This document shows, piece by piece, positions 20,667 through 63,311 of a DNA stretch of 64,000 bases (position 1 is its first letter; each line of letters opens with the position of its first letter). A program made the position numbers and the translations under genes. The DNA is from Mesocentrotus franciscanus. Its lineage: Eukaryota > Echinodermata > Echinoidea > Camarodonta > Strongylocentrotidae. Under the pieces are notes generated by a model. The model was not told where the DNA came from. It saw only the letters and a list, made by a program, of their open reading frames with translations, and did not search any database. The DNA lies in the NCBI GenBank assembly GCA_037976565.1, contig CP137686.1, positions 4,134,019 through 4,198,018 of the forward strand, written 5' to 3'.

Positions 20667-21101
20667 ATGGCACGTGTTAGTTCACGAAGGATTCCAGGCT
20701 TTCCAGCAGCTTCGTGCTATCTTGTGTTGACCGTTGTGTTGGCGTTCGTAGCGGTGACATCGACGAATGCAGAGAACCCTAAAGTTTACAAGGAAGCACT
20801 AAAGGTGAAAGAAAAGGGAGCTCAATGGGAGATGCCAGTCGGAGGGGCAGTGGCAAGACGCGCCCAACGAGAGGGTTACTGGCTGACGAACTCCTGCGGG
20901 AAGCTTACAGCTTTGATGCAGACCAAGAAGAAGGTGATTGACAAGTTGAATCAGACCATCTATGACGTTGATCAGAAATTTCAACTACCCAAGGAAGAGA
21001 GGGCTTTCCAGATACATACCTTTCAGATCTTTCAAAAAGAGATCAACGAGAGTGAGAATGAGATCTTCATGGCCATTAATGGACTACAGAGGGCACTCCA
21101 G
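20667..21101 (+). CDS. TMCO3: TMCO3-like exon 1 (start codon, signal peptide, coiled coil)
   Basis: ATG in the context AAAATGG, with an in-frame TAA 12 bases upstream (20655), fixes the start. 145 codons. A basic N-terminus is followed by a hydrophobic run ([13 protein letters not shown]) and a likely cleavage after TNA near residue 35. Then a heptad-rich segment with [20 protein letters not shown] and LQRALQ, diagnostic of TMCO3. Donor CTCCAG|GTATGT. Confidence 0.92.
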
Positions 21102-23280
21102 GTATGTTACATGCAGAACCATCTAAACACAGCGTTAGGCAAACAAAATTTCAGACAACATGGCATATATTCTTTTGTTTTGTGCTTGCCCAACAAGGCA
21201 GTATTAGCCATATTGTGTTCAAGTCGAACCAGGTTGGATAAACTCTCCTTATCAATAGCACCAGTTGCACATCTTGCAAACTTCAAAAGGACCATTATGT
21301 AATGTGATGTTATTGCAACAATCACTACACAATACAAACATATTTGTGTTTTTCCCAAATAATCCCTTTTACATGTACATGTAAATAGGCCTGTGAAAAA
21401 TAATGTCTGCTACTACAATTTAGAGTAACCCTCACAGAGTGGGTGTACAAAACTTTTACATAAAGACCACCTGCCTATAAAGACCATTTTTCTGTTTCCC
21501 TTGAGTGGTCTTTATATACAGGTTTCACTAAATGATGATTACATTTGTAGATACATTCTTGTAGTTGAAAGTCAAATGTATTTCACATTATAATCAAAAG
21601 GACCTTGATCAGTTTCAGCCATAAGTTTGAGTAAACATTTATTGCTTGCCTTGAACATATTTAGTCAAGCACAAAATCGAAAGGAAAATCAAATTTGTAA
21701 TATTTGATTTTATTGAACCATGAATTTTTTTTTTTTCTTCATTTGTATTGGTACAAAATGTATATTGTAGTAGAGAAGTATGCTGCTTTCATTGTAACCC
21801 ATAACAGTTCAGAGTTTCCTAAAGGTTTCAATAAATCAGCTTTTCTCCCCAAAGTGGCACCAAGTATTTATTTTGCACTCCTACATGGTTAAAAAATTAA
21901 ATATGTACATATTAAATGAACCAGTATGAATAACATTTACAAAAAATCAACAAGAAATTGTCAATTCATACATGAATATAGGATTATAAATTTCACTCTG
22001 CATTGCCAATTCAGAGACCTTAATGATTTGTTTTTATTAAATTGCTCTTATTCATGAACGCCTTGAATGCCACAACATAATGCATCAGAAATGGTCTCAA
22101 ATCTTCCAGTGATTTTTTTTTCCGCTTTCTGCTCATGTACAAGACGTAATGTAAAACATTCTGGATTGAAAGATAAATATAAAATACCACTAAAAGATGA
22201 CACTAAACTGCTAGTGTCTAAAGCCCCACTGCACTATTTGTACAGTGTAGCTACTTGCTCCCTCTATATAGAAAACAATGCCTAAGCGGTGCCCGTTGGT
22301 CCCCCATGATCCTCTTTTTCTTATGTTAATTGAGAGCTGAGTTGATGAGATAACCATCTGTCAGTGACCATGCTGGGAGGTCTAATCCCTCCTGGCCAAA
22401 CTAGTGCAGAAGGGCTTTAATAAAGCGAACTCACTCATATCCCCTACGTGAACATCACAGGGCAATTACAAGGACATCATTAACATGAAGGAGAGCAGCC
22501 GTCTGCGTCTGGGTGCCTTGCGAGGCAACTCTGATGGAGGAACAAGAGTTCAATGACATTGTAGCTGCGGAGAAGAAGCAGATAGCTGCTAAGGTTCACC
22601 TTCAGCATCTCAATTTTGGGAACTCCTCAAACCACACCAAGGTGGAGACTATTCTAGATGAAATATTTCAGGTTTGTCCTTTTACATGTAAATGATGGTT
22701 TTATAAATTATAAATCAATAAAATTTATCAATGTAATCAACAGAAATAATGATGATAGTGATGACGTGATGATGATGATGGTGACATGATATTTGTGATG
22801 ACGATGATGATGATGAGAAGGATGGTGATGAGGATGAGATTTGTCATTTTGAATGATGGTTTAGAAATTATAAATCAATATAATTGTATCCCCCGGCAGT
22901 ATGCCGGTGGGGTACTTTGGATTCAGCAGCGTTACGCCACCACGTCCGCCGCGTCATATTCTTGTGTGCACTCTAACTACCACATTCCTTGATGGATTTC
23001 TTTCAAAAGTTGTATGGAGGTGTGTCTTAGTACATCTACACACATATTGTTTTGGTGATGCTGCTCCTAGTCTTGACAATAGTCCAAGCCACTACTAGTG
23101 GCGATCTATACGTCATTCTTTTGTTTCAGAGAGGGGAGAGGGGATCTTTGTCCCTCCTTCGAACATAAGAATGACACAAAATCGCTGCCACTGCCAGGGG
23201 ATACATTCACATTGCACAGCAATACAGATTGCGATATTTCTAGTTGTCATTGTAATAGGCAGAAATGATGATGATGATGG

Positions 23281-23322
<42 letters not shown>

Positions 23323-23588
23323 CATAATAGTGTTTAGTTTGGGATGTATGCACATTGTAAATTTATATATTCATATTATTTTTTGTTTTTTGTTGTTTTT
23401 CGTTTTGGTTGTTGTTGCTGTTGATGTTGTTGGAGACGATGGTGCGGGTTGTGTTGTTCCTGTCGTCATCATCATCGTCACCGCCATCATAATTATCAAT
23501 GTAACTATCATCATCATCATCATCATCATCATCACATCATCATCATCATCACATCATCATCATCATCATCACATCATCATCATCATCA

Positions 23589-23632
<44 letters not shown>

Positions 23633-23722
23633 CCATAATCATCATCACCATAATCATCATCATCATCATCACCATAATCATCATCATCATGACCACAATC
23701 ATCATCATCATCATCATCATCA

Positions 23723-23766
<44 letters not shown>

Positions 23767-26700
23767 CATCATCATCATCATCACATCATCATCATCATCA
23801 CATCATCATCATCATCATCATCATCACATCATCATCATCATCACATTATCTCCATCATCATTATCACCATTATCATCATCATCATTATCATCATCATCGT
23901 TATCATCATCATCATTATCATCTCCATCACCATAATCATCATCATCATCATCATCATTATCACCATTATCATCATCATCATTATCATCATCATCGTCGTC
24001 ATTTTTTAGTGTAAATTGTGAGTTTCAATGTGATTCACAAATTACATGTACATCTTCTACAGGAGGTAGCTGAAGCGGCAGATAAGCTGGAGATTGACAT
24101 AGAAGAACATGCTTTTGACAAGAGCAAAATGGTGAGTTTGTTTTGTTTATAAATGAATAATAATGTGAATTAACAGATGACGTAGAATAGCGAAAGTGAT
24201 ATGCAATTGCTGGCAAGCATGCAAGTTTTACTTGTAGTTAGTAAGGGCGGTATTCTGAAAATGATGTTATATATTATGTTACGGAAAAATGATGTTGACT
24301 GTCATAACAAACTCAAAATGCGCAGGACTAACACTTAACATTGGTGCTTGTGCAGATGTCTCTTTTAATTTTACACAAACACAGCCAGCTTTGGGCAGGC
24401 ATTAATCAATTACTTGTCCTAATTTTGATTCACTATGACAATCAACATCATTTTACTATTAAACATAGAAAGTTTGCAATGTTTTCAGAATACCGCACCT
24501 GGAGGCCTGCTAGTCAGTGGTATAGCTATGAGGTGATGTGCCAGCTAGGCACCCCCATTAAATGGGGAAAAGGGACAAATGAGAAGAAAGACGATAATAA
24601 GAACTCCTCTACACTTTCCCCCTAACCCTATATAGCCCGGGCGATTTTGAAACTGCATAGCCTGGGGGCTTCTAAGGCTCCACCCCCTATGATCTCGGCC
24701 ATGAAACGGCCGATCGGCGCAAAAATTTGCATGCATGTCAAGTGAAGTGTATAGAATACTATGGTAATACTAATGGTAATTCAATTTTTTGAAAAATTCA
24801 CTCATTTGCCTATATATATATATATATATATATGGGAATTTATGCAATTAAGGTCATAAAATTCACATTTTTACACATCAATCATATATTCTTCATTCGT
24901 TTTCACTACATATATCCATTTGGAATAATAATACAACAAACAAATTTGGAAGAGGCAGGTTGTTCCTTATGTTATCTATTGTTTTGATAATTTCTTATGT
25001 ATTTCTTTGTTTCTTCAACTTATGTATTTTATTGTTTTTGTTGTTTTATTTCATTTCTAACTATAATTCAACTATTTTGACCCTCAAAACAAACACCTAA
25101 ACTATAAACAAGACCAAATAACCATTGTTTTATCTCTTTTTTGAAATATGATATTTCCATATGTTTTGTACCGAATGACCGATTTTGGGCTGACATGCAA
25201 AGACAAAAGGTCACATGACCTTGTAACGGTCCGATTTTCTAAAAATTTGTTTCAAAAGATGCGCAAGCCCCGAAAGAAAAAAGTCATAAAATTTCAGCGC
25301 AAAATTTATTTTTGGTTAAAAAATTATCACAAAAAATGTAGAGGGGGCTTCTAAAACCCCCCCTAGGCTATATACTTATAGGGTTAACCTGTTGCACAGT
25401 GTCTTCATTATGCATTTCATCTATTTTATTAAAGAACAGTGTCACCCCCCATCAATGGCTGAATCCAAGCTATGCCCCTGCCTGCCGTTTTAACCAGAAG
25501 TATATTAAAATATGTACCCGATGGAGTTGCTGATGTAGCTCCCACAATTGCTTTGCGTGAGAAGTGGCACAACATGTAGTGGAATAGACGGAATATAATG
25601 TACTGTACAATTAAACCTGTTTCAGTGACCAATTGTATAGAAAGACCACCTGTCTATAAAGACCTAATTTTTTGTTTCCTTGAATATGGTTTTCCATTGA
25701 AACCTGTACTACATGTAAAAGAACCTGTACATAAATACCACCTGCCTGTAAAGACCACATTTCATGTTTCTCTTGAGCAGTCTTTATATACAGGTTTCAC
25801 TGTATTCATAATATATTCAAAGTATCTGTGTACAGTATCCGTGTACATGATCATTTGATAATGTACTGTGTAATTGTAAGAATGTAATGAGGATATTCTC
25901 TCGCTCTATTGAGGCTTTCAAGACAGTAATTCCTCATTTTGTGGTTTGGCTTAGATTTTGATTCAGAGCCCTAAAAAATATATCAGATGCATGAGTAGAA
26001 AGGGCAAAAATGTCTTCATACTCTGTGCGTAATTTTGTTGCATGACCATATTGCGTTTGATGCTAGGAATTTAAAAAGGAAGCTTTAAAATACTTAAGTC
26101 AGCAACACATGGAGAGGTTCAATGTCATTGTTTTTTCGATAGAAACTAGCCTATATTCACAACTTTTCGACAAAGCTTTGGCCCATATATTGTTTTAAAG
26201 GTATAACATTTTATTAGAATGATGTAGCATTATTAAGAGAAGTATCATTATTGCCAATCCTAATGTTATGAGCCAGAGCAATATAACACTGAGTTCCCAT
26301 AGGCAATCTTTTTATTCAGATGGTTATATCTCAGCCAATACTTAACATATTCAATTGGTTTTCGACATTTGGACATTATTTTTGGTGGTCTTTCGGAAAA
26401 TGAAGAAAAAATTGAGAAATTCCAAAAATTGATTTTTATGACGTCACAGCTTCGGTACTCTATTACATTTTCTGTACAGAGCGAATTGGAGAGGAGCTCA
26501 CAAGATACGTCACAGTGTTGCCAATTTGTGTTTCACTGATGAAAACTTCACAAATCGGATATTGCTCAAACTTTCACTAATCTGTTTCTATCATTTTTCC
26601 GCTTGTATTGATACCAAGTTGATATCAGGGTGGACTTCCCCTTTAAACAAAAGTATAGCTAGTACCGGTACATGTAAAATGAAGGAATATGTATGAACCT

Positions 26701-29297
26701 TGATGATATGAGCTACAGCCATTCAGCAAATGACTAGTTGCTGTAGCTTCAATGTGACATCCCTTTCACATAGAGGATACATGTATTCAGCAGCTAAAAT
26801 TATTTCTAATCATAGATGGAACTGTCTGGTATGGATGTTTCATATACATGTATGGATGTTTTAATACAAGTGGAAAAATATAAGGTCATAGTCAACAAGT
26901 TATGTTCTAATTTCATGTGTGCTATTACTTCTACTGTTTATTATCTTTAAAGTGATAGTTAACTTTTTGGCGACAATCATTCCACATTTTGTGGTTTGGT
27001 TATTTAAAGAACCTTTGATTTAGAGCCTTGAAAATATGCCAAATGCATTAGGAGCAAGGGCAAAAATTTCTACACACCATGCTTCCATTTTTGTTTCACA
27101 ACTTTATTGCGTTTGATGCCAGAAATTCTGAAAAGGAAAATGGGCTTTAAAATTTTTTAATTGGCAACACGTTCAGAAATTTGAAATCATTGTTTTTCTA
27201 TCAAAATTTGCCATTTATTCAACTTTTTCATCAACATTCTTGCCCATGAATACTGTTTTCAGAGATATTACATTTAATTTTTTAAATGTAGAAGCAATAA
27301 AGAAAAAACATTGTTGCCTATTTGAAGAGCAATATGTGATCAATTTAACCTTAAAAATAAATACTGTCCTGAAACGAGTTTAAACTGAATCATCAATGCA
27401 TGGACCAGGAACCTCAATTTGTTATGACGAACTCCATTGAGTGAGAGTAGGATTAAGACTTACTGTAAGTGATCTTATGAATAATGCAGGGTGCTTTGTA
27501 AACATGTACCATACAACTTATTAGCTCGTCTGCTGCACAGATCCCTGCTCGATTTCTAATGCAAAGGTGAAGAGTAGACTTTTAAAGGGATAGTTGATTT
27601 TGTTGCAGAGGGCGCTACACAAAACAATTTGTTTGTGAGATAATGAAAAACTGAGTGTCAAATTTGAAAGAATATACAATTTAAATGACAAAATCATCTT
27701 TGGTTGATCTAAATCGGTTCAGAGACGGCTGAAATATCCATAAATATAACGACTTCTAATATTTGTGGTAGTACATAAATATTAAATAATTTGAACCAGC
27801 CGTTGAAAAAACGAGATAGCGCCTTGTACGTTTTATTCCAGCCAATGCCGATGTTTGCTTTTTCGTGTTGGTTATAATACGCACAACCAGCCGGCCCGTG
27901 TATCGTTATTATTAATTAATTAATTAATTAACGGTCCTAGCATTTTTTAAAAATGTTTAATGGAGCTGAATTGGTACGATCGTATTGGCTAAATATCACA
28001 CATTTTGGGGTCTAAGATTACCTTCATAGCAATTTCCAAAACTGGTCTATACCTTTAACCGCTATGAAAATACACGTATTTGTACATGTTTGTAAATTCT
28101 CAAGTATTCAGTCATTTCGATGAAGACATATCATGTAATCATGTTAATGAAAAGAGGCTTAAAACGGAACTCCAAATAACACGTACACAAATACTCAAAA
28201 ACGATCCGTCATGATTTTTAAATAATGGGAAAATTAACATCAGGGTTTCCGAACTTGAACTTTTGCAAACAAATGTAGCGCACGCGATCGCTCAAAGATC
28301 AGTACAGTGACAAATACTAGTTACACAGTACCAACTAGTAAACAAAGTACGTCCATGCATGCCCTCCTCGCTTAGCTAGCTCGCGCCTCGTCGATCGACA
28401 CAGCGCTATGAATGATTCACAAATTCATGCCGCGCCTTCGTACAATATGAATGACTGAGGTGAACAAATGGGATCGCGTAAAACGCGGCAAAATGCATGA
28501 TGCATGAGGTAGCGTGAATACGTTATAGGCGAGGGCATGGCTCTGCGGCTCGCGTTATGAATGGCTTGCGCACTACCTACGGCGCATGGTAGTTTGGACT
28601 CAACAAACCACAATACCACATGTCGGTCATTTGTAAAACTAATGAATATTCATTACACATTCATGACACGTGCTCGCTCCCTCGACCAAACCATGGGATT
28701 GATGCATCGACGAAAATAACAGTTAAACAGTCTTGATGAATGCGGCCGTCGGTTAAATGTTTTGACTCAGGCTTAGTCCACATTCACTTGCCGACTATTT
28801 ACATTTCCAAATGGGGGAGGGGAGGGGTCGGTGCCCTGGGCCCCTGTTAGTGTTGAGATACGTGTATTGTCGTTTTAAGTTTCAATTGTTCAATTTTACA
28901 CCTCCCTGCAGGCTAAAGGATCCCAGATCGAGGCTGTCGTTCGCATCGATGAGATCCTCGGCAATTACAACAACTCCAACTCCGTACGGAAAAGAGCCAT
29001 ACAGCCAGGAATGAGTCTACTCATCGATACAAGTAACAATCAGTATGTACTCACCAAGCCGAAGGATACAACAGTGCCGCTTGAAGATCATAATTTTATA
29101 AAGGTAAGACTTTTTAAGAAGAAACCTAAACAAAAACATTATTTCGTTGTTTTTCTTGTTATTTTGTTCACGATGCGTGATTCTGATACTGCTCCACATT
29201 TAAAAAAAAAAAATTTATGGGAGATGATTTTTATGTGCTACTTAAACAATAATGATAATAATAATAATAATGATTAATTGCGTATAATAATGATGAA

Positions 29298-29337
<40 letters not shown>

Positions 29338-30396
29338 TCTTGTGTACCCAGGGTAGACTCATCAAGTCGTACTCCCTAAGGGTTCTGCAATCATATTATT
29401 ACTCAAGCTTTAACTATTGGAAGAAGAAAATTTGATAACTTGTCAATAATGTTATGAGAAGCAAGACAAGGTGGTAAAATTCATGTGTTTTTTTTTCTTC
29501 AAGTTACTCCTCTCTAGTTTGCGGTGATGTTAATGGTTTTAAGGTTGTTCATACTATGGAACAAATATAATGATTCTTTCTTCATATTGGACAACGATAT
29601 TTTCCGTACTAAACATTAAAAAATTGAAATACCACTAGGATGCTTGACAATGTGTGTTTTTTAAAGATTTATTGTTTCGGTGAGCAGCATTACTAAACCT
29701 GTTCCATATTCAAAACATTCCTATATTTCAGGTTTTGATTTCACATACTAGACCCCACACATACAGTGTACATGTATGATGTGGGGAAATAACTGTACTA
29801 GGTTTCCCTGTGAAATATTCCAGTAACACTAACCGTGTATTGCTAATTTCCTTGTTGACAGGATATCATCTTAATGATGGTGTTGGCATCCGTCCTGGGC
29901 TGGGGAGCAGTTTCCATATTCAAATCATTCTTATAGTTTAGGTTGTTTTTCACTTAAAGCCCCACTGCACTACTTGTAGGTACTTGATCCTCTATATAGA
30001 AAACAATGCCTAAGTGGTGCCCGTTGGTCCCCCATGATCCTCTTTTTCTTATGTTAATTGAGAGCTGAGTTGATGAGATAACCACCTGTCAGTGACCACG
30101 CTGGGTGGTCTAATCCCTTCTGGCCAAACTAGTGCAGACAGGCTTTAAATGTACTATTAGATCCCACACATACATGTATGGTGTGTGGAAATCAATAGGT
30201 TTCCTTGTGAAATCGTCCAGTAACACAATAACCATGCTTTCCATTCTTTGACAGGATATCATCTTCATGGTGGTGTTGGCCTCCATCCTGGGCTGGGGAA
30301 GCAGTGCAATGGGGTTTCCTGCTATGTTTGGTTACATCATGGCTGGCGTTATACTAGGATCAGATGGGTGTAATATCATCAAGGTAATGATGATGG

Positions 30397-30453
<57 letters not shown>

Positions 30454-33400
30454 GGATGGTGATGATGATGGTGATGGTGATGGTGATGATGATGATGATG
30501 ATGGTGATGGTGATTTTGATGATGATGATGGTGATGATAATGATGAGGGGTGGCTGTGCTCATGGTGTTGGTGATGGTGAAGATAGTGATGATGGTGGTG
30601 GTGGTGAAGGTGATGATGATGATGATGATGATGATGTTAGAAATGATGGTGATAATTATGGTGAAAATGATGATGATAATGATAAGGGGTGATTGTGCTA
30701 ATAGTGGTGGTGAAGATGATGATGATGATGATGTTTGTCATGATGATGATGGTGGTGATGGGGAGGTGGTTAGGGAGGTGGTGATGATGATGATGATGGT
30801 GATGGTGATCGTGATGACGATATATAATGATAATAATGTCATGGTATTTATGCTTATCAAATAATAAAAATTGTTTTCAATGTTTATTTTACCCTCTTCA
30901 ATTGACAGGCAGTGGTACAGGTGGAAAGCCTTGCTGAGTTCGGTTCTTTCTTCATTCTTTTCTCTGTTGGGTTAGAATTCTCTCCTGAAAAGATTAAAAA
31001 GGTAAGTACCAGTCAGATTTCAAAGTATATAAAAAACAAATAGATACTCAAAACACCTGAGATGTGTACATGTATATGAAAATCTGTTTCCTTTCAATTA
31101 TTGTGTTCAGCATCTCAATTTTGCCTAGAAATTTATACTTATCGGAGGCTACATCAGGCTATTCTATTTTGAAATGTCATGAAATATATCATTTTGAAAA
31201 GAATCTCTGTCCTATAAAGTATTATAATTCAGATTGATCAAAACTTATTCCAATCAGTGTCAAAGTTACAGTTAGCTATCTCCTTTTAACGACATTCAGT
31301 CCCCTTCATTTACAATATTGACTTAATTATGTACGTGACAAATGTATGTTTCATACTAACATTCATAAAAAGCAACTAGAGTTGAATATTAGATAGCCTG
31401 CATTATTTACACTGTCCTAAATGAAATACACGTAGTAGAAGTTTCATTACCGAGCCAAGTTGAGCTAAAATTGATAGATATAAGTCATATCTTTTTATAG
31501 GAAGGGGCTCTGGGCCCCTGTTTCATAAAACTTTGTATCAATAACAAGTAACAATAACTGTTATAAGCTAATGAAATCGTGACATTTGATTGGGTGAGAA
31601 CAAATTTGTCATAGAAATGTAGCGTTTGTTATTGATAACAAGTATTGTGAAACAGGGCCCTGGTGTTCATCATTTTAATTTGGTTTCTTCCACAGGTATG
31701 GAAGGTAGCTCTTATAGGCAGCGTAGCCATGAGTGTCCTCATGATCGTCTACGGGGTTCTCTTCGGTTTCGCCTTACACATCATCCCGAGGCAGAGTGCT
31801 TTCATTGCTGCCTGCCTGTCTCTCTCCAGCACTCCACTGGTTGTCAAGTTCCTCAGCGCAAGCTCAAACTCCACACGCAGAGATAAAGAGGAAGGTGAGA
31901 TAACCATGTTTGTTTGTTTGTTTTGCCTGACTGCTTAGAAAAGCGTGTGTAAGCTTGGAAGTAAGTGACCAGGGGACTGACAGCTTTAAGTCCTCTCCAA
32001 AGGGGACTTGGTAATGAGGATGATGCCTTACCAAAGGGCACTATAGTGCATCGAATTGGTTTCGAACCCAGGATCTGTTACCTGATAATTCTTTCTCCTA
32101 CGTGTATGCGAGAGGACAAATGTCCTCCGATTTGATTACCATGATTACAGTCACAACCACACTCTCCTGGGCATATTGGAAATGCAGAACATCCAGTTTG
32201 ATCACATAGTAGCAATTATTCCCACATTGACTCGGACAGACATTTCACTTCTTATTAATGTGACCTTTAACCTTTTAACCTTTGACCTCTCTCATCGAGA
32301 CATTACAGACCATGATTATGATCACGGTCATACTCTCCTAGGGATACTGGTAATGCAGGACGTTCAGTTATTCTTTGTAGCAATCATGCCTTCTTTTGCA
32401 GAGACTTAGATTGCCTTCTACAATGCTAGAGTACAAATCCAAAAAAAATATATATTATTTGATGTTTAACCTCTGACCACTCTCATGCAGATGTTGCAGA
32501 TCATGATTACAGTCACACTCTCCTAGGGATACTGATAATGCAGGACGTTCAGTTATTCTTTTGCAGCAATCATGCTTACTTTTGCAGAGACTTGAATTTC
32601 CATCTCCAATGCTAGAGAACAAATACAATCTTTTTAATTTGACCTCTAACCTTTGACCTCTCTCATGCAGATGCTGCAGATCATGATTACAGTCCCACCC
32701 TCCTGGGGATACTGGTGATGCAGGACGTCCAGTTAGGTCTTCTTGTAGCCATCATGCCTATGCTAGCTGGAGCTGAGAATGCCTTACCCAATACCAAAGG
32801 AGAGGCGTCTATTCTCGTCAGCATTGTAGGAACTTTTAGCCTGATTCTTTGGCTGGCATTAGGTAAAAGAGATCAACTCTCTTTCTTTAAATATTTTTTT
32901 TTGTATGCAGTAGTCAATAAAGAGAAGGTTGAGTTCTGGGGAGAGGTGAAAAATAATTTGTGAGCGTTTTCATTGTTATTTTGCAAGTGTGGGAGAACAT
33001 GAGAGAAAAAATGTTCCCTGAAAAGCATGGCTCTTCAAATGCCTTCATATTCTTAATATGACATGTAACAGCTTAAAAATGTGGGCCTCATTTTTATGCC
33101 ACATGTTTGTGTAGTCCCATGTACATCTTTCTGTGTACAGTGCTTGTTACTTTTACCAAGACTGGACCAAATTTCTTATCATTTTGATGATTCTTGAACC
33201 TTGCAGTACACACCAATACTTATATGCTACATGTACATGATCAACCGTTTCTGATCGATTCCACACCGTTTCTTTCACAATGCAATCGCATGACCAGAAC
33301 TCAACTTTATCTTTAAAGATACTATGTCCCTTTTGCAGCCAACATCAAATTCTGTAGAACTTTGCAGGAATTATGTCCTGTATGTCCTATCTGTGAAATT

Positions 33401-36400
33401 TAAACGTTAGCAGTGTCCTAATATTCAAATTATGCAAGGAAACCCGTTTACTTGCTAGACTTCACTGTCAGACACTATTGAGTGACTGACTGGCCTTTCA
33501 TCTTTGGTAATAACATACATAAAATGAGCTGTAAAGGGTACATGAGCATTTGTCTACATCAATAACCCACTTCTTGTAATGGCCAAAATTAAACTGATTG
33601 AATCTTTGCGCAGCATAAAACGTACGACCATTCGGTACAATGGTCTGAAAAATCAGACTATTACTTACTGGCTCTATAGCTCCTAAGTCGATTCGACAAC
33701 TAATAGTCATTATTTTCCCACTTAAAGACATTTTCAAGCCTCCTTTTTTTTAGGGAAGTTCTAAATTAGTATTGTCTTTCAAATGCCGTTGGAATTTAAC
33801 CTTTTCATTTTTTTGGCCTGCAAATGGGACATAGTACCTTTAAAGGAAGTGTCACATAAAACAGGCTACAAACCATGCTCATAGGATTGTCTTGGCAGCA
33901 AGAAAATTATAATATTAGGCTTGGGGTGGAATATTGCTTAGATAAATTGCATTTAGAGAGTTTTATCATTTGCCCAACTGATGCTTTCAAATGTGATCCC
34001 AGTGCAAGCTCTCCTTTAAAGGGACTTGGTAACATTGTTCAGATGAGAGAAAATGGTGCTAAGGTAGTGACTTCAATGCTAGATGTAAAATTAAAGATAA
34101 TCTGAAAGTTTGAGTGAAAACAGACCATTATTAACGATAAAAATTGGGTAAAACTGATCTGATCGATTCCTTAATTCTCCCAACTTTATTATAACAATTT
34201 AATTACATTTTCGGTGAATGTAAATCGTAACAAGGCTATGAATTGGCTCTATATATCATTCTAGACATTTAAGTGTTGAAAGATTTGTAAAATCCTGTCT
34301 TATGTCTTATTTTCATGGAAAAATGGTTGGAAAAATTCAAAAATGGTTGGGAGAATTGACTGTTAGAAGGTGTTGACCAGGGACGCCTTCAAAGAAAACC
34401 ATAAATATCTTTGTGATTTGAGAATTTTTTCAGGATATTTTGCTGACATTCAACTGTAATTGAGAGTGTGCTCAATTATCTCTTAAAGCAAGAAAATGAG
34501 CTGAATTGTTAATATAAACCCCTCAAAAAAGTTTGAAACTCAAGTTAACTGATTACATCTCTCTTGCTATGGCATAATTATCACTATATTTAGTATTTAG
34601 TCAAAAGTGAAAAGGTACAAAGTGTACTGCTCTTGTTCGGCTGGGCATTCTTCTTTCTTTGAAGAGTGTAGGGCTGTAGTGTAGTGCACTGCATAACAAT
34701 ACCAGTGCTTACCAGTGCAAATATGGTATCATTTTAAAGAGGAATAAACATACTTTCTAATAATTTTAAACAAAGTAATAATTATCCCATGACGAGTGAG
34801 ATATAATCGATCAAACTTGCGTTTCCAAATTTTTTTGAGGGGCTTATATAAGCTGTAAGTACAAGAATACTTAATTTCTTAAACTATACATTTTTTTCCT
34901 TAGCAAAAATAGACATGTACACGTATAAGTTTAAGAGCCACTTTTCTATGTACACCCCCTCCCTCCTCTTATAATACAATGTATGGCATGTCATTCTTGC
35001 CAAACATGATGTCCAAACTAATCAAGTGACCTTTGATCTCTCCTACAGCCATGGGAAGCATTTTACTATTAACCTACACCTTCAGTAAACTAGTTGTACC
35101 CGTCATCTTCAATCGCTTAAAACGCGAGGGCAACAAAGAGATATTACTCCTTGCTACGATATCCTGTGTATTTATTATGCTCATGGTAAGTTGTTTTTCT
35201 TTACATGGACATCGCAGATCGTGTAGCTAAATTGATGGATGTGTGTTTTGATTGACTGTAGGAATTGATATAAGAAGGTGAGGAGGGAGAAAAGAACGAT
35301 TGAAGGAGTGAATGATAGAAGGAGTGAAAAGGAGAGTGAATGATTTAAGTTGGGATGACAATAATAAATGTGTAAGAGAGGGAAAGTGGTTTTGAAATCT
35401 CACTCGCTGACTGTATTTTTCATATTTCTCATTTCATTTATAGATCATAGACTTGCTAGGTGCCATTGCTGAGTACTTTTGGTCGTGTACTCATAGAAGA
35501 ATTAAGTGTGATAGTAGAACCCTTTTTTTTGGGGGGGGGGTTGCTTGCTTGTCCAGATTGTTCAGGGGAATGGTTGTTTTGAAATCTCATTCGCTGACTT
35601 TTTTTTTCATTTTCTCTTTTCATTTTAGATCACAGACTCGCTAGGCCTATCTATGGAGCTTGGTTGTTTTCTTGCCGGAGCAATGTTAAGTACTTTAGGC
35701 CATACATTCATGGAAGAATTAACTGTGTTGGTGGAGCCCATTAGAGATGTCTTTGCTTGCTTGTTCTTTGCATCTATAGGTGAGTTTACCCCCTCTCTAC
35801 TGCACACAGTCTAATGAATGCAATTGTTGGCTGGGTTCATTCATTCATTCATTCATTCATTCAAAATGGTATTTATTTAAAACAATCATGTGTGGCAACA
35901 TTATGTTGAATAGCGCTTAATTTACAATCAAATGATAACAAATAACAAGGATCATACTATTATGTACAAAATAATAATTTACAGTGATGGTTAAAAATAA
36001 CATTAACAGTATATCATATGTAGAAACAAAAGAAAAATACATTACAAAGAAAATTATACATAGTCCTTAACATGATAACATAGTTTTCTCATAAATATAC
36101 TGCAAAAGGTACAGGCAGGGTTTTAATATTGTGATGGGGGTAATTATGAAGAAAAATGTAATACTCTGCTGTACCACTTATTGACGTACTTGTTTACGTA
36201 GAGGTGTCGTGGTCGAGTGGATATGTCACCGGACTGTCGATCAAAAGGTCCGCGGTTCGAGTCCCGCCACGACACTAATGTCCTTTGGCAAGACATTGAT
36301 CTACATTTGCCACACTCAACCCAGGTGAGGTAAATGGGTACCTGGTAGGATTATTCCTTGAAATGCACTGTGCGCTGATAACGGCTGCCGGAGCTAAAGC

Positions 36401-38629
36401 TAGGGTAATAATGTCCAAAGCTCTTTGGAAGCGCATAGAGATGTTATTTCATAACGTATTATGCGCTATACAAGAACTGAACTATTATTATTATTATTAT
36501 TATTACAACTGTAGGTTAGATGAGCTCTTGTGATAAAATTTGATGATTTTTCCATGTGTGTAAGCAATATAATGAGTTCAATGTTTTTTAAATAAACTTT
36601 CAAACCATGACTTCTTGCACTACAGCAATTTATCCAAGTACAACATTAATATTATACAACTTAATGTATTTTGATCAATTGGTTTATAATTTGAAGTGAA
36701 ATGTTAAAGTCGTAAAATTACGATCATATCCGACTGTGGTTTTGTTAATATGCACATTGTTGTCAATGATCCACAAGTAAAGATATGTTGATGGAAAACT
36801 TTGATATTCTAAGTCAGGATATTTAGCTTTGAGTATCATTATTGTCATTTTATTTAATAATAATATATGCGATTTGTAAGGCGCCAAATCCACTTGAAAG
36901 CAAATAATCAAGGCATGCTTGTGAAACAAACGAAGAAAAAGAGATCACATAAAAACATCTGCATTATAAACAAAGGAACTGGAGTAAGATAGAACATATG
37001 AAAGTGAAAGAACAATTAATTATATGCCGAATTAAACAGATACTTTTATTAAAGATTTCTCTCTTTATCTCTTTCTCAGGCCTTCATATCTTCCCAACCT
37101 TTGTGGCGTATGAGCTATCCATTCTCCTCAGTCTCACATTTACTGTAGTTATATTAAAGGTAAGCTATCATTAAAGGCATCGTTTAACAATGTTAAATCT
37201 GAGATGCATGGCCCTACGTGTTATGAGTGTCTGTGATATGGTGTAATATTGAAGCCCTAAAAAAATTGCGCTTCAAAATGATTAAGAAGTGCCTCAAAAA
37301 AGTAAAAATCTTTGAGTGACCGGTTTTACCATACTCGTTTTCCCCAATAGACTGTAGTGTTATGAAAACCGTTAAGTAACGCAAAAATTGATTTCCAATC
37401 ATAAATATCTTGATAATCAGACAGGCGATCGGCTTGTAAAAGTCACAGGGTTCCTAACTGACCTAAAGGTTTATAATTATCATTGCATCATGAGCTAAAT
37501 CCAGGATTTTGTTTCAGAATCTGAGACAAAGTTACCCAATCCCTTTAAGGGTTTCTATCAAAGATTACCAGGGCCCTGTTTCATAAAACTTGTTATCGAT
37601 AACTAGTTAGAATAACTGTTATAAGCTACTGAAATTGTGGCACTTGATTGGCTGAAAGCAAATTTGTCATAAAATTTTAGCATGTGTTATTGATAACAAG
37701 TTTTACAAACAGGGCCCAGGATATGAAAGCAAATATGAAGGTTATCTTTTGTTGTATTTTACTATTTTAGATATTCAGAGTTGGGTCAACCTAATAGGCC
37801 ATTATCGTAATGTAACTGAATTTATACTTAAGTGCCTCAGTATGAATTATTTCATTCACCTGTTACGAATAATTATATTGTAAAAGTCAGAATGCAAAAT
37901 TGCATATATGCTACGTGTTGTTAGGTAGGGCAAGAAATAATGTTTGTCCTACCTAGCAACAACTAATGTATGCAATTTGAATTCTGACTATTGAGATACA
38001 TTTATTCATAACAGGAGAATTAAATAATTTGTATCGAGGCACTGACATGCTATTATATATCCTGAACAATCTATTATTTCAATCAATTGTTCACGTTGTT
38101 TAATTATTTTTCTTCTAGTTTTTGACGGGTGTCTTTGTACTTGGTATTCTTCTACCGTTGAGTACTAGACACATCAAATGGGTCGTAGCGTCAGGCTTGG
38201 CTCAGGTCAGTGAATTCTCCTTTGTACTCGGAAGCAGAGCAAGGAGATTGGGAATCCTGTCTAGAGAGGTAAAATTTAATTAAATTTTTATTTTTGTATG
38301 AAGGGTTTTGCTCCGACCGGAGTATCGTTAAATCTTACCCTTGGCGTGAAAGTACCTGGATGACTGTGCAATTGTAAAACGATATATCTCAAGGGTTGTG
38401 AAAAAGTACCTGGATGACCGTGCAATATTGTTTCAATGTCTGTTAATTCTAAGTATCACAATCTTGAGTCTACCCTGAGGCACCTATTTTGTAAAGGACA
38501 ATTATATGTTAAGTATGTCTCTCTGTTTATTTACTGGTATACTGACTGTTCTTACTGTAACAATGGCTCGTATTCTAAAGGAAGATACTTGTATGTCGAT
38601 GTACATTATGAATGCATTATGATCTAACA

Positions 38630-38675
<46 letters not shown>

Positions 38676-41600
38676 CCTCTCTCCCTCCCTCCCTCCCTCC
38701 TCTCTCTCTCCCTCCCTCCCTCCCTCCCTCCCTCTCTCTCCTCCCTCCTTTCCTTCCTCCCTCCCTCTCTCCCTCCCTCCCTCCCTCCCTCTCTCCCTCC
38801 CTCCATCCCTCTGGTCTCTCTCTCTCTCTCTCTCTCTCCATCTCTCTCTCTTTCTTCTCTTTCTCTCTCCCTCTCCCTCTCTCTCTCTTTCTCTCATTCT
38901 ATAGGTTTACCTATTAATTCTAAGTGTCACAACCCTGAGTCTACTCATGGCACCTATTCTATGGAGGATTTCCTTATGGCGATGTAGAAGACATGTACAT
39001 CGTCCAGTCTTAGCCAGGTGGGTATGCTTAAAAGAGAAGAGAAAACAATTTGTGAGCTTTCTATTTCTTTTCCATCAGTTTGGAAGAATATCATAGTAGA
39101 AATGTCTCCTCAAAAGGGTTGCTCTCCAAATAACCTCAAATTTTAATATAGAAAATATATATATATTCAATTATATGAGTGGCAGCAAAAACTTACCGTA
39201 AATCTCTGTGTATAAGATGCACCTTTTTTCTATCAGAAAAATTCAAAAGTTGGGGGTGCGTCTTATAGACAGGTACAGGATATTTTGAGTCCTCAAAATG
39301 CTACTTTTTAGTGGTTTTCGATAATCTCTGTGTCTCAACATAAACTACATCTACTATTTGAAGTTAACCTACGTTCCTAATTTGAAGGGAAAAGAGTTTT
39401 TTTTAGTTTTTTTTTAAGTCTCGATTTTATTATGCCCCTTCACATAGCACTCTGCCGGCCGAAGCTCTGCAGGCCGTAGCTACCCGTGCCCGGTAGAACA
39501 ACGGCATGGTCCCAGCTCACACATACATGGGATATCGACTCACCATTCAGAAACTAGAACCAAACTAGCCTACCGGTATGTCCGAATTTCTGTTTGGACT
39601 CGAAGGAAGATTTGTCTGTCATCTTTAGTTTTAAAACAACATTGTTACTATTATTTTTGAAAAGTTCACAAGCAAAAATTGGTGCCTTCAACTTCGCCGG
39701 TTTTCTAACGTACTACGGTGTCTGCAAAAAAGCATAACATTTTTTTGGGGGGGGGGGAGGTCTTAAAAATAGGGGTGCGTCTTATACACAGGTGTGTCTT
39801 ATACACAGGTGCGTCGTATACACAGAGATTTACGGTATATATCTATGCACACAATATATCTATGCCTGAATTCATATTTGCTTACTAATGCTAATAACGT
39901 TCATGCTGTGATTTCATAGTGGAAAACTTCTCATGAATATATACGATACGATATTGTATACACGTATATGCCTTGATGCATGGCACTGTATAATCTCATA
40001 ATCTCTTCTATTCAATATTCTTAGATTTTGAATATTCATAGAAAGCTTTAAACCCTATATAATCACTATATAATCTCTTATATTCAATATTCTTAGATTT
40101 TAAATATTCATAGAAAGCTTTAAACCCTATATAATCACTATATAATCTCTTATATTCAATATTATTATATTTTTAAATATTCATAGAAAGCTTTAAACCC
40201 TAAAGTCTTGTTCACAAATGCCACAGTAAATTGTATCATATTATCAGTGTTCTCAAAGAATGGCAAATGGTATTTCAGAAAAGTATAAAGAAAGGAGCTG
40301 TACATAACATACACTGTAGGTCCTACCTATACCCATCTATATGGTAAGTTATAACCCATTGGCTACGGGATCCCGGTAGATCCTGTACTAAACCTATTGG
40401 GTGGTATTCTTGAAAGTGGACTAACTTTAGTCCATGGTTTAATCCTCCGACTAAGTACGGAATGCCAAGTCATCATCAATAGTGATCTGTCAGTTTATGA
40501 CAGGTTCAGTGACCCAATCAGAGTTCTACTTCAAGTGTCTCTCCAAGTACTTCGGTCTTTAGCCATCCGTTTCAGCATTTCATATCCTGTTGCTCCACAT
40601 TCTGCGATTAAATCATCTAGAAAGCCTTTACGAGGTCTTCCCCTCAACTTCTTTCCATGTAGACGACCTTCTAGAACTCTGATCATCAAGCCGTCATCAT
40701 GCCGCATGATGTGTCCAAGCCATTTCTTCTGTCTCTTTCTAATCGTTTCAAGCAGCACCCGCTTTTCTTGAGCTCGATGCAACACCTGCCAAGTGTCTAT
40801 ATGAATATATTTTTGAATAATTTGATATGTCCCTAAATTACCATGATAACGTAAATATTTCATAGTTACATTGTTGTTTATTAATTATGTTATTACATTT
40901 TATTTTAATTTAGTGACAGATTACATTATTCAAAAACATATTCATATGGACACTTGGCATTCCATACTTAGTCGGAGGATTAAACCATGGACTAAAGTTA
41001 GTCCGCTTTCGAGAATACCACCCATTGGAAAGAGACAATTCTGTAGTCAATGGGTTATGATACAAAATTGTGAAGTGTAGTACACTGAAGTAAGCTTCAA
41101 TTATAAAAACAGGGTTTACGCTGGCATATGTGAACAAGCCACTTTAGGCCTGTCGTCATCAGCTAGAGTTTGCCAAATAACCCGCTTTTTTCAGACTCGG
41201 GATATTTTCCCCGAAGCTCTGAATTGCGTCTTCACCAGACCGATACGCTCATCACAAACTAGCTCGGATTGGCGCAAAGTAGCCCGCTATTTGGGAAATA
41301 GCGGGATATTTTGGAAACAAGACCAAGATTTCTCAGGATATTTTCTCGAACAAATATCCCGCTAATTGCAACTGCGGGCTGATGAAGACGCAAATTAGCT
41401 GGATAATTTGCGATCGGGATAGTTAAAATAGTGGGTTATTTGGCAAACTCGAGCTGATGAGGATAGGCCTTATGATGTCTTGCATAGAATTTTAGGCCTT
41501 GAAATATACCCTCATTTACTCTTGACATGCTAGACTACCTCAGTTTCGATTTCTCCTTTGAAGCAATGAACAGTCATATGATGGCAATGAATATAAAAAT

Positions 41601-44600
41601 TCTTATTCATCTTTGGATAATGAAATATTCTGAAAGCTGTTAGATGTCTGTTTGAAATATGATATAATATATATATAAATTTGGCATGAAATTCAAAGAT
41701 GAGGGCATCAAGGGCCAAACTTTAGATACCTGCTTGGAATTTAGATTATTTTCACCTCTCATTCACTTATTACTGCACCACTTTAGAATTTATAAAGCAC
41801 TATGGAGCAGATTGGAGTTGTGAGTATATTTATTGACATTCATCGGGTCAAATTTAAAAATAAAATAAGTGACACACTGCTTTTTTAGGCTTGAAGAGAA
41901 GGTTGAGTTCTGGGAAGAGGTGAAAAATAATTTGTGAGCGTTATCATTGTATTATGCAAGTGTGGAAGAACATCAGAGAAAAAATGTTCCCTGAAAAGCA
42001 TGGCTCTTCAAATGCCTCAATATTTTAAATATGGCATGTAACATCATAAAAATCGGGACAGATTTTTATGCCACATGTTCGTGTAGTCCCATATACATCT
42101 TTCTGTGTACAGTGCTTGTAACTTTACCAAGACTAGGTCAAATTTCTTATCATTTTGATGATTCACAACCTTGTAGTACACACCAATACTTATATGCTAG
42201 ATGATCAACTTTTTCTGATCGATTCCACAACGTTTCTTTCACAATGCAATCGCATGACCACAATCCTGTCCACAAGCTGGAAAAGACCCCAAAATTTTCA
42301 TCTGCTTTTATTGTAATATGGTCTGTTGAGAGCCAGAAGGGTATTAACTCTATGTGCCGTTTTGGCTGTCAACAAAGGGTGCATTATACATCATACATGT
42401 ATCATAATGATCATATTTTTTGTTCCTTTTCTTTCTAATTAAAGATAACCGCACATATCTGGTGGCTTTAAGCATATCATTGGTTGCATGGGGCTTACAG
42501 GTTTGTTTCAGCATGTATAGATGAGAATGCCTGTAGACAAAGAGTTGAATGTACACTCTAAAACCAGAAACTCGCTTCTCAAAACTCTAAGAACTGATAA
42601 TTATGGCTGTTTTTCTTAAGTGAATATACTTTGTCATATAATATATCATGTATCCTTATGTTATATAATATATAATTTGTCCTTTGATTTTGAGTGCTAT
42701 TTTTAATGGTACAATATCATGTGAAATGATATGGACAAATTTTGGCTACAAAGAATTATCAAATAAAACCATTATTCAATTGAAAAAATATAAGTTTGCA
42801 AATTGCAAAATTTCTATGCTGCATGGAACTTTTGTAGATCTCAACCACTCATGGAATTCGCAAAAATGTATTTTACGTTAAAAAAAGTTTCTGGTTTTAT
42901 AGTAGATACAAACTTTTTGTCGACAGAATTATTCTTGAGAAGGAATTATCTTTAGAGTCCCTCTTCTTTAATTTCTTTCATTCTTTCATTCTTTGTTTTT
43001 CTTTCTTCCACATGTAGTTAGTAAGCTGTTGTGTATTCATTGCAATTTGTTTAATTTCCTTTTGAATTCATTTTTCTTTCCACAGCTTCATTCTGTCATA
43101 CTCATTTTATGAACCATATACATCCCTCTCTTTTCCCATTACTAACCTATATATTCTGAAGTACTAAAATGCATTGCAATAATCATACTTCCTATTTTCA
43201 TTTTCAAACTCTACCAAACTACAGTATCTGCAGTAGGAGCATGCAAAAAAATTGGTATTACTGCATGCTACCATACGCCATTTTCTGTTTAAAGGGAAAT
43301 CCAACCTTGATAGCAAGCTACTCTAGAGGAAAGCAGAAAAATGATAGAAGTAGACTGGTGAAATTTTGAATGAAAATGAGAAAGTTATGAATTTTTAAAA
43401 GTTTTTTAATCACTATAGGTTTGTGCTCTTCTAATTTGCTGCATCAGTAATGTCTCTGTGATGTAGTGGCATAGAAATAGAAATGTTCGACTCAGGAGGG
43501 TCTTTATCTTTACAGGAGCTATGATAATATGCTATCCATAACATATATTGTTTTGAGTAGTGCCCCAAGGGTGAAGGCACAAGAAAAACAGAAATTAATT
43601 TGTGTACACGACAAACAGGAGAGTTATCCGATACTACGTCACAATCCAAATTGCCAATTTGAGATTCTTATAGACTTAGTGATCTCATATTTCAAACATT
43701 CATAAATTGCTTATCATTGGTCCGATTTATATCAAACTTTCCCCATTTTGTTGATCTTATTTTTTCTGCTCTCATACTAATGAACTTATCACAAGGGTTG
43801 GATTTCCCTTCAAAGGCAAAATCATCCATACGTAAATGAAAATGCCTCTGCTTATTTCTTGAGGTTGTACGTGACATGCTCCTGCTACGATTGCTCTGCA
43901 TCAATTTCCTATACTAACCGAATTCTTAAAGGGGAAGTCCACCCTGATATTAAGTTGTGGCGTGGGCCTGTAATCCAGCTAACAGTGGAAGTTACAAACT
44001 GATTCAGCCGAGGATGCAGGTTCGAAACTGAGTCGCGTCTTTCGGATGGTGACGTTAAAGGTCGGTCCCCAGACGTAAATAATCATATCTGATTGATACA
44101 CGTCTGTAAAAACCCAATACACACACACACAGAAGCAGAAAAATGAGAGGAACTGGTCTGCAAATGTTTGATCAAAATCTGATTAAAAATAAGAATGTGA
44201 CATATCTTGCGAGGTCATCTCCAATATGCTCTGTACAGAAATTTCATAAACTTTCATTTTCTTAGTTATTGATGACTGAATAGATTTGTTTCATACTGGG
44301 GTTGTATAGAAACATTTTTGCCATAAGTATATATAGGGGGCATGTATGATTGAAAATTTTCTTTAGGGAAAATTTAAATTTCCCTCCTTTTTTTAGTACA
44401 GAGTAAATGGAAGAGAACCTTAAGGGAAACTATATATTATTCAAGTTTTTTAGTACAGGGCAAATTGAGGGAACCAAGATATTTCACAGAGTTGCCAATT
44501 TGTGTTTGATTAATCGCACCTTAAAAAATTCATAACTGTCTTATTTTCAATTGGCTTTTGCTCAAATATTCACCTGTTTCTTCCATTTTTTCTGCTTTTA

Positions 44601-46254: not shown

Positions 46255-46900
46255 CATTGGATCCAAGTCTACCTGAAGCATTGTGATTGAAGCCCGTGGC
46301 TCTATGTGATTGAGATTGCAAAGCTATGTGAGCTTGAAATTGGGACCAAGGCTATCTGAGACTCCACCGTGGACCAAGTCTGCCTGAAATATGTGATTAA
46401 AGCCTAATACTACTTGTACTTGTGGTTAAAATTAGGTCCAAATTTATATCATCTTGACATGAGACCCAGGCTGTCTGAGATGTATCATGTGCTTGAAGCC
46501 TAAAACTAGCTGTGATGTAGATTGGGACTTGTGCTATGTGAGCTTGAAATCGGGACCAGGTCTGTCCGAGACTCACTTTTGTACCTAGTGTGCTTGAAAT
46601 ATGTGATGGGTGCATGAGACCATCTGAAATTGGAGACTGATGTGGGACCAAGTCTGCTTCAGATGAGGACCAGGTCAGCTTGATACACAATTAAGTGGAA
46701 GAATGCCTGAGATTGGATAAATAGGGGGAGACAAAGTGTGACCTGGTGAGACTGGAACCAAAACTGCTTGAGATTGGGATTGGCACTATTTTGAGATTTG
46801 AACCTATACTGAGTTTGGGACCTTGTCTTTAGGACCTACTTTATATTGAAATTGGGACCTAGACTAAGATTTGGACCTAGATTGAGATTCGGACTAGTCT
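46230..46900. repeat. Degenerate tandem repeat in the probable 3' UTR
   Basis: Variants of TTGGGACCAAG and CTGTCTGAGA recur many times, with a looser unit near 210 bp (for example GCTATGTGAGCTTGAAAT at about 46322 and 46531). No ORF is maintained. Confidence 0.6.
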
Positions 46901-54119: not shown

Positions 54120-54611
54120 TCTCTTTGCCATCCTCATTCACCATTTTTTCTATCCCTCCCTCTCCCTTTTTCTCATTCCAACAGCCTCTCCCCTCTCTCT
54201 CTCTTTCTTTCTCTCTGTATCCCTCTCTCTCACCCCCCCCCCATAAGTCTCCCAAATAGCTTCTCTCTCTTCCTTTCTCTTTCAACCTCTCCATCTGCCA
54301 ACTTGTTTCTGTCTGCCCCCTGCCCCCTGCCCCCTCTTTCTCTCACCATATTCTATCCCATTTTTTTCTCTTTCAACCTGTCCATCTGCCAATTTTTCTA
54401 TGTCTGCCCGCTGCCACCCCAATCCCCTCTCTCCCTCTCTCTCTCTCCCTCTCTCTCTCTCTTCCTTTCTCTTTCAACCTCTCCATCTGCTAACTTGTTT
54501 CTGTCTGCCCCCTGCCCCCTGCCCCCTCTTTCTCTCACCATATTCTATCCCATTTTTTTCTCTTTCAACCTGTCCATCTGCCGATGTTTCTATGTTTGCT
54601 CCTGCCACCCC

Positions 54612-57905: not shown

Positions 57906-58446
57906 TTAAAGATACTATGTCCCTTTTGCAGCCAAAATCAAATTCTGTAGAACTTTGCACTGAGGAATTATGAATATGTCATGTATGTCCTATCTGTGAA
58001 ATTTAAACGTTAGCAGTGTCCTAATATTCAAATTATGCAAGGAAACCCGTTTACTTGCTAGACTTCACTGTCAGACACTATTGAGTGACTGACTGGCTTT
58101 TTCATCTTTGGTAATAACATACATAACACGAGCTGTAAAGGGTACATAAGCATTTGTCTACCATTAATAACCCACTTCTTGTAATGGCCAAAATTAAACT
58201 GATTGAATCTTTGCGCAGCATAAAACTTACGACCATTCGGTACAATGGTCTGAAAAATCAGACTATTACTTACTGGCTCTATAGCTCCTAAGTCGATTTG
58301 ACAACTAATAGTCGTTATTTTCCCACTTAAAGACATTTTCAAGCCCCCTTTTTTAGGGAAGTTCTAAATTAGAATTGTCTTTCAAATGCCGATGGAATTT
58401 AACCTTTTCATTTTTTGGGCCTGCAAATGGGACATAGTACCTTTAA
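57906..58446 (-). mobile_element. MITE family D, copy 3 (reverse)
   Basis: TTAAAGATACTATGTCCC to GGGACATAGTACCTTTAA. Carries a minus-strand 94-codon frame (58058-58342) beginning [14 protein letters not shown]. Confidence 0.88.
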
Positions 58447-58816: not shown

Positions 58817-59341
58817 TTAAAGATACTATGTCCCTTTTGCAGCCAACATCAAATTCTGTAGACATTTGCAGGAATTATGAATATGTCATGTATGTCCTAT
58901 CTGTGAAATTTAAATGTTAGCAGTGTCCTAATATTCAAATTATGCAAGGAAACCCGTTTACTTGCTAGACTTCACTGTCAGACACTATTGAGTGACTGAC
59001 TGGCTTTTTCATCTTTGGTAATAACATACATAAAATGAGCTGTAAAGGGTACATGATCAATAACCCACTTCTTGTAATGGCCAAAATTAAACTGATTGAA
59101 TCTTTGCGCAGCATAAAGCGTACGACCATTCGGTACAATGGTCTGAAAAATCAGACTATTACTTACTGGCTCTATAGCTCCTAAGTCGATTCGACAACTA
59201 ATAGTCGTTATTTTCCCACTTAAAGACATTTTCAAGCCCCCCTTTTTTTAGGGAAGTTCTAAATTAGTATTGTCTTTCAAATGCCGTTGGATTTCAACCT
59301 TTTCATTTTTTTGGCCTGCTAATGGGACATAGTACCTTTAA
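58817..59341 (-). mobile_element. MITE family D, copy 4 (reverse)
   Basis: Same ends and orientation as copy 3, from which it is separated by 370 bp. Its minus-strand frame (58978-59235, 85 codons) is again open. Confidence 0.88.
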
Positions 59342-61713: not shown

Positions 61714-63311
61714 GTAAGAACAATCTCATTAGTTAAACAAAATTAATTATACCCAAGGTGACTTTAAATGAGGGCTTTATTTGTACATGAAGTACTTGAC
61801 TCACAAATGCATGTAAAATAATCATCTTTACCAGGGCTCCAGCTCCACTGTCCTCCACACTAACTATTTGGGAAGGAGGTCCGGTTTGAGTCTTTCAAAG
61901 TCTTAATGCACAAGCTACATGTACAAGTATATATAAGATTTTCACAATTTGGGGGTCCGGAGTTGGATTTTGGGCACCCTTGTGTTCCAGGTGCCTGTTG
62001 GTGTCGAGCCCTGTCTTTACCTTTGTTTCAGGGAATATTTTCAGACCAAATTAAGAATAGTTTTTTTCAGAGTCAGAATTGTTGATAATGTAATGTTACA
62101 GTGTAACTATGTTTTTATTTATTTTGCACAATTTATTTCATCATTACTAAAAGTTTTACCATATTAAAGTTTTTAGAATTTGTCATCCTTTTTTTTCTTA
62201 TTCATTAATTACAAATGTTTATTGTATTTTCATTGATTTTGATTTGTATATTTTTATAATTTGATATAATATATGTTTACAATTGTTATTCTGGTATGTG
62301 TTACAAGTGCTTTTTTGTGTACTTTCCACTGCCTTTTTTAAAAATAATATGCTCTTATTCTCATGAATACATGCATCGCCTTAAGTTCTGCATCATCAGC
62401 ACACTTTAAAAAAGAGGTGGCAGAAAAGGATTTGTTGTGGTAAATTGAAGAGATTAACAGTTGGTAGTGTGTGTTCCCTCTGAAATAGAACATGTCTACT
62501 TTGCTTCTTCCTTTTCATTGTGATGTGAGGAAATAGCTGTGATAGCATTACCTCTGAGCGGAAGTAAAGAAGGACGTTTTCATTCAGACTTTACAACAAA
62601 AAAATCTAGTCTACTACAAGATGGTGACACTGGAAATTTCTTATGGATGTTAAATGACAGTGATGCACACCATACTACAATGTACATCTTTCTTTGAGGG
62701 TGAAAGAGGGCAATGATTTTAAAAGAAAAAGATTTGGTGTTGATCTCATGACTTTTCTTTGAGTGAAAAGATCACAGGCTGTCTTATCTCTTTTTTCTTC
62801 TTTCTTTTTGAATCTCCTGTCCTTATCCTGGTAATTGAATTCTGTGTTATGATCAAGGATACTTCTGTTGTTGGTTTATTGGATTAGTTTTCATGGCACT
62901 TATCATTCAGTTTTGAATATTGAAAGTTATTTTTTAAATATTTTTTTTAAAACTCTTAGTTTAATGTTCAATCTTTATTTTCTGTTGAAAATTCTTGGAC
63001 ATAGATTTATATACATGACTTTGACAATAACCTTCTGTGAAGTTGATGACCATTAACAAAATATCTGTCTTTCCCTTGAGTCCCTTCTCATGATCAGTTT
63101 AAATGCACTTACAGTAGTGTATTTACTGTCAATTAAGGTTCTTATAATATAATATATAATTTACAATTTTTACATGAAACATTGTTTCTAGTGCACTCAC
63201 TTCTCTGTAATTAATCATTTTTTAAAGAACTTCATACAGTATATTTCTGCCACTGAACGATAACCGCAGATCTTGAGATCAGTAATAAATTGATGAATTA
63301 CTTGTATAATT
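61714..63311. other. Start of a large TSC22D-like intron, nothing recognised
   Basis: AT-rich intron sequence. No exon with TSC-box features (DLVKSHL.YAVREEVE) is visible. Confidence 0.5.

What the first reader, a model, noticed from the sequence alone, without database searches (positions are those of the whole stretch)
29700..39017. Four different exons of one antiporter gene have decayed upstream copies
Exons 5, 8, 10 and 13 of the TMCO3-like gene each have partial copies lying 5' of the intact exon, in the same orientation and carrying flanking intron sequence. Four independent local duplications in one gene, all with the upstream copy decaying, suggest recurrent unequal exchange or replication slippage. 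They may also be relics of mutually exclusive exon cassettes. All four exons encode antiporter-core segments.
Basis: seen in the sequence. Interest (0 to 1): 0.8.

Follow-up and report, generated by a model that had tools for sequence, protein, structure and literature searches.

The report
Partial exon copies in introns
A sea urchin ion-transporter gene carries several old, broken partial copies of its own exons in its introns, most likely left by ordinary short local DNA duplications; their position is explained by simple geometry rather than by lost alternative exons.

Summary
The repeats are real. Exons 5, 8, 10 and 13 of a sea urchin TMCO3 gene each have same-strand partial copies upstream (z 10 to 49, 0 of 200 shuffles each). 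I count seven fragments: one each for exons 5 and 10, three for exon 8, two for exon 13.

The interpretation needs changing. No detectable match reaches the 3' end of its exon or a donor site. A tandem duplication spanning an acceptor must leave the whole exon downstream and a fragment upstream, so 'the upstream copy always decays' is geometry.

Frame-breaking indels in six of seven fragments, a near-neutral mix of changes and sea-star isoforms that differ by exon skipping argue against former mutually exclusive exons; exon 8 leaves slight room. Local duplications are common in the window. Acceptors are still over-hit (4 of 14, against 13 of 406 non-exonic probes); part of that is probably detection bias, which I did not measure. 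Ordinary overall, with one small unexplained excess.

The parts
20667..46254 (+). TMCO3-like gene (PF00999 cation/H+ antiporter), 15 coding exons
   Evidence: tblastn of P0003 (S. purpuratus XP_011678640.1) and P0001 (L. pictus) onto the window; Pfam PF00999 E 1.2e-50; splice dinucleotides
30255..30383 (+). exon 5, intact
29746..29911 (+). exon 5 fragment: about 110 bp of intron end + AG + first 51 bp of the exon; ends inside the exon
   Evidence: 92.0% (exon part) and 87.0% (intron part) over ungapped sites
29702..29747 (+). intron segment X before the exon 5 fragment; repeated at 29912-29956 directly after it, placing the tandem-duplication junction inside the exon
   Evidence: 82.6% identity, 46 bp, E 1.6e-4
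29912..29956 (+). second copy of segment X (start of the second duplication unit)
32671..32862 (+). exon 8, intact
32138..32222 (+). exon 8 fragment c1, the most diverged of the three (77.6%), acceptor not recognisable
32289..32480 (+). exon 8 fragment c2 with intron end and AG, no donor, stop codon after the matched part
32480..32660 (+). exon 8 fragment c3 with intron end and CAG; the match to the exon stops at 32792 of 32862
35629..35779 (+). exon 10, intact
35386..35552 (+). exon 10 fragment: intron end + TAG + exon with internal gaps of 27 and 5 bp; match stops at about 35764 of 35779
38905..39017 (+). exon 13, intact; a long CT-rich simple repeat lies just upstream
38432..38518 (+). exon 13 fragment a
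   Evidence: BLAST 38440-38488 E 3.7e-6; z 10.3; 0 of 1000 shuffles
   Evidence: score 27.0 against shuffle maximum 24.5, 0 of 1000; not significant against fragment a, 172 of 1000
46204..46254 (+). exon 15 coding end; its end is the first unit of a downstream repeat spaced about 105 and 210 bp
46328..46632 (+). downstream copies: 46328-46404 of the exon 15 end/3'UTR, and 46519-46632 of the unit at 46313-46422
   Evidence: z 10.1, 0 of 200; the exon 15 end probe was not listed as a hit
22837..22890 (+). downstream copy of the exon 2 donor region 22670-22729 (last exon bases AG plus intron); donor GT reads AT in the copy
   Evidence: (z 14.1, 0 of 200)

Best explanation
The upstream copies are neutral debris of short (about 100-210 bp) local tandem duplications. 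The duplicated unit began in the upstream intron and ended inside the exon, so it spanned the 3' splice site. The second unit runs on into the original exon, so the whole exon is downstream by geometry. The upstream unit is a 5' exon fragment with no donor, is skipped in splicing, and drifts freely. It repeated upstream of exons 8 and 13, where units multiplied like a minisatellite. Duplications across the other end of an exon leave the fragment downstream. Shown: the repeats, how far they match, the lack of a recognisable donor, the junction for exon 5, and the downstream cases. Inferred: that the fragments are never spliced in, that all were partial from birth, and the mutational route (slippage or unequal exchange).
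For: Matches stop before the exon end in all four: 30305 of 30383, 32792 of 32862, about 35764 of 35779, and 38968 (at most about 38996 with looser gaps) of 39017. The remaining exon 3' parts, with donor-side intron for exons 8, 10 and 13 but not for exon 5, were sought in the copy tails (6 tests, 2). None was clearly found. The two low counts were exon 13 (8 of 300), which led to fragment b, and exon 8 against c2 (25 of 1000), whose match still ends inside the exon. For exon 5 the order X-Y-X' is visible, so that copy was cut inside the exon at birth. Copies at the 3' side of exons lie downstream: exon 15 (z 10.1) and exon 2 (z 14.1). Six of seven fragments carry frame-breaking indels in the exon part; c1 of exon 8 does not (my reading). 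Pooled over five stretches, changes fit a neutral copy beside a constrained exon (26 replacement of 47, expected 28.6-30.0, P 0.08-0.18). Similar local duplications occur elsewhere: 12 clusters in the window, 7 of them in or at the end of the gene.
Against: Acceptors are hit more often than this window's background predicts: 4 of 14 against 13 of 406 upstream-copy probes (Fisher P 0.0014; binomial P 8e-4). In random placement P(>=4 acceptors) is 0.0016-0.0033, but P(>=4 acceptors plus donors) is 0.05-0.10, and only 3 acceptors met the strict BLAST rule there. Exon 8 copies keep amino-acid sequence somewhat better than neutral (c2: 5 silent, 1 replacement change, P 0.011-0.012; c1+c3 P 0.05-0.09). 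c1 and c2 lie in one 106-codon stop-free stretch, and in the c2-c3 comparison the exon part differs less (9 of 86 sites) than the intron part (10 of 36) and the tail (14 of 72). For exon 10 the match ends only about 15 bp before the exon end, so loss of a former donor cannot be excluded there. No introns of other species and no transcripts could be examined.
Confidence: 0.86

Rival explanations
1. The fragments are remnants of whole duplicated exons that were once spliced in mutually exclusive fashion, now decayed.
For: Exon 8 copies show fewer replacement changes than a neutral copy should (c1+c3 P 0.05-0.09; c2 alone 0.011-0.012), and c1 and c2 lie in one 106-codon stop-free stretch. Copies keep residues that the intact exon has since changed (H and V in exon 8, L in exon 5, I in exon 10), so they are old.
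Against: No recognisable exon 3' end or donor in any copy. For exon 5 the duplication junction lies inside the exon. Lengths do not match. Exons 5, 10 and 13 fit neutrality. The five sea-star isoforms I aligned skip exons 5, 6 or 8 and swap none. By eye, none of the four named echinoid proteins P0001 and P0003-P0005, nor the unnamed P0002, carries a second copy of these segments.
Confidence: 0.06
2. The apparent repeats are chance, low-complexity or assembly artefacts.
For: Long simple repeats sit beside exons 5 and 13. Exon 13 copy a is short (49 bp in BLAST) and copy b is weaker and does not match copy a significantly.
Against: Matches survive masking of simple repeats and dinucleotide-preserving shuffles. 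Differences of 8-31% over ungapped sites with distinct indels are too high for duplicated or mis-joined alleles.
Confidence: 0.02
3. Acceptor regions are preferred targets or preferred survivors of local duplication, for example because the extra acceptor/branch-point sequence buffers splicing.
For: Excess at acceptors, while exon ends with a downstream copy number 1 of 15 or 2 of 15.
Against: AG is kept in 4 of 7 fragments (my reading), about what 15-25% drift would leave by chance (my estimate, no call). Detection is probably biased, because the intact exon is constrained and pairs stay recognisable longer; this was not measured. One gene only, chosen after the fact.
Confidence: 0.06

Closest known systems
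Tandem exon duplication in animal genes, including unannotated copies (PMC9013439, passages read; it cites a 2002 survey giving about 10% of animal genes)
   Same: Local copies of an exon near the original, found by similarity search
   Different: Here every copy is a 5' exon fragment without donor, and several exons of one gene are affected
[quoted passage not shown]
   Same: A short tandem duplication with a breakpoint inside coding sequence, one copy becoming intron
   Different: Here the unit spans an existing acceptor and no new intron position arises
Mutually exclusive exons, Dscam type (PMC6071210, passages read)
   Same: Thought to arise from tandem genomic duplication of exon plus adjacent intron
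   Different: No second complete exon, no donor, no sign of use
Minisatellites (recalled, no call)
   Same: The exon 8 series and the 3'UTR series are tandem repeats of roughly 100-210 bp
   Different: The first or last unit is part of a working exon

Membership tests
Mutually exclusive exons | two or more complete exons, each with acceptor and donor | tested here: not met
   no match reaches the exon end or a donor; exon 10 stops about 15 bp short, the others further
Mutually exclusive exons | same length and open frame | tested here: not met
   all fragments are partial; six of seven have frame-breaking indels in the exon part, c1 of exon 8 does not (my reading); c1 and c2 share a 106-codon stop-free stretch
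Mutually exclusive exons | both copies under coding constraint | tested here: inconclusive
   exons 5, 10, 13 fit a neutral copy (P 0.38-0.52); exon 8 c1+c3 P 0.05-0.09, c2 P 0.011-0.012; exon 13 fragment b not tested
Mutually exclusive exons | alternative transcripts | not testable with these tools
   no transcript data for this species; five sea-star isoforms show skipping only
Partial tandem (exon) duplication | direct-orientation neighbouring copies including flanking intron | tested here: met
   for exon 13 the intron part is barely detectable
Partial tandem (exon) duplication | head-to-tail junction of unit end to unit start | tested here: met
   exon 5: X-Y-X' order; exon 8: successive units. 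For exons 10 and 13 the junctions are only approximate
TMCO3 gene | PF00999 domain and best matches to named TMCO3 proteins | tested here: met
   93.8% over 483 shared columns to S. purpuratus

The most novel reading that the evidence does not exclude
Splice-acceptor regions in this genome are hot spots for, or favoured survivors of, short tandem duplication. Upstream donor-less acceptor fragments, above all the exon 8 series that kept its coding sequence better than neutral, once served in splicing, either as decoy 3' splice sites or as short-lived alternative exons swapping the segment that carries the QD motif of the antiporter (motif named from memory).
Probability: 0.07. Interest if true: 0.55.

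Novelty: new member of a known kind. Interest (0 to 1): 0.25.

Why it matters
It shows how a tidy pattern, 'the upstream copy always decays', can follow from geometry alone. Such fragments could mislead gene predictors and searches for mutually exclusive exons. If the acceptor excess held genome-wide, it would bear on where short duplications arise and survive in genes.

Tried and rejected
Chance or low complexity: rejected by masking and shuffles. Assembly collapse: rejected by the level of divergence, without reads. Mutually exclusive exons: see rival 1; the lower identities of the Patiria and Acanthaster isoforms looked like swapped exons, but the alignment of five isoforms showed plain skipping of exons 5, 6 or 8. 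The odd exon 5 in the S. purpuratus model P0003 looked like use of a truncated copy, but its extra residues match intron sequence just before exon 6 in the window, so I read it as a model or assembly fault. The random-placement test used exon ends 1-3 bases off for several exons and required 5 bp on both sides of the junction, so it saw 3 acceptors and not 4; its P values are for >=4. Dispersed repeats shared between introns 8, 13 and 14 are not exon copies and were left out. Background counts as hits some probes that are themselves exon copies or lie in two long repeat pairs; dropping those leaves 5 of 406 (P 2e-5), which makes the excess larger, while using hits on either side (29 of 406) makes it smaller (P 0.015). 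In one search, c2 of exon 8 was left out of the pooled tests because it shares history with c3, and fragment b of exon 13 was not tested.

Paper searches showed no title or abstract start describing these copies; I saw listings only, plus passages of three papers. The TMCO3 search listed 15 of 113 papers, and in those listings I saw mostly cancer and other disease topics.

Full report
What the locus is. The + strand from 20667 to 46254 holds a 15-exon TMCO3-like gene. The translated core matches PF00999, the cation/H+ exchanger domain, at E 1.2e-50, and the best protein matches are sea urchin TMCO3. Over shared columns the window protein (exons 3-13) is 93.8% identical to the S. purpuratus protein, 91.6% to L. 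pictus and about 83% to the two Diadema, so I infer a host close to Strongylocentrotus.

Noticed in passing
22462-22671: Exon 2 changes reading frame at about 22522 relative to the sea urchin orthologues: an assembly error, a polymorphism or a broken allele.
   Followed up: partly
32920-33299, 39032-39146, 41894-42263: A dispersed repeat (89% between first and third copies, 74-76% for the second) starts about 15-74 bp after the ends of exons 8, 13 and 14.
   Followed up: partly
31513-31663 and 37571-37720: Another dispersed repeat pair (84%), the first copy just upstream of exon 7.
   Followed up: no
40534-40884 (-): Open stretch that, from memory, resembles a piece of LINE-type reverse transcriptases; inverted repeats of 73 bp (96%) at 40398-40470 and 40952-41024 lie around it.
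   Followed up: no
30384-30840, 38612-38900, 23425-24011: Long simple repeats; one begins directly after the exon 5 donor and one directly precedes exon 13.
   Followed up: no
57906-58446 and 58817-59341: Direct repeat pair of about 540 bp at 93% identity, 911 bp apart.
   Followed up: no
54271-54611 and 63301-63903: Tandem repeats spaced about 192 bp (96%) and about 177 bp (74-85%) outside the gene.
   Followed up: no
31894 onwards, compare P0004, P0005 and P0061: Diadema TMCO3 models seem to read through the exon 7 donor in frame before exon 8, and one Branchiostoma model has extra residues at the same place, hinting at alternative donors or model faults.
   Followed up: no
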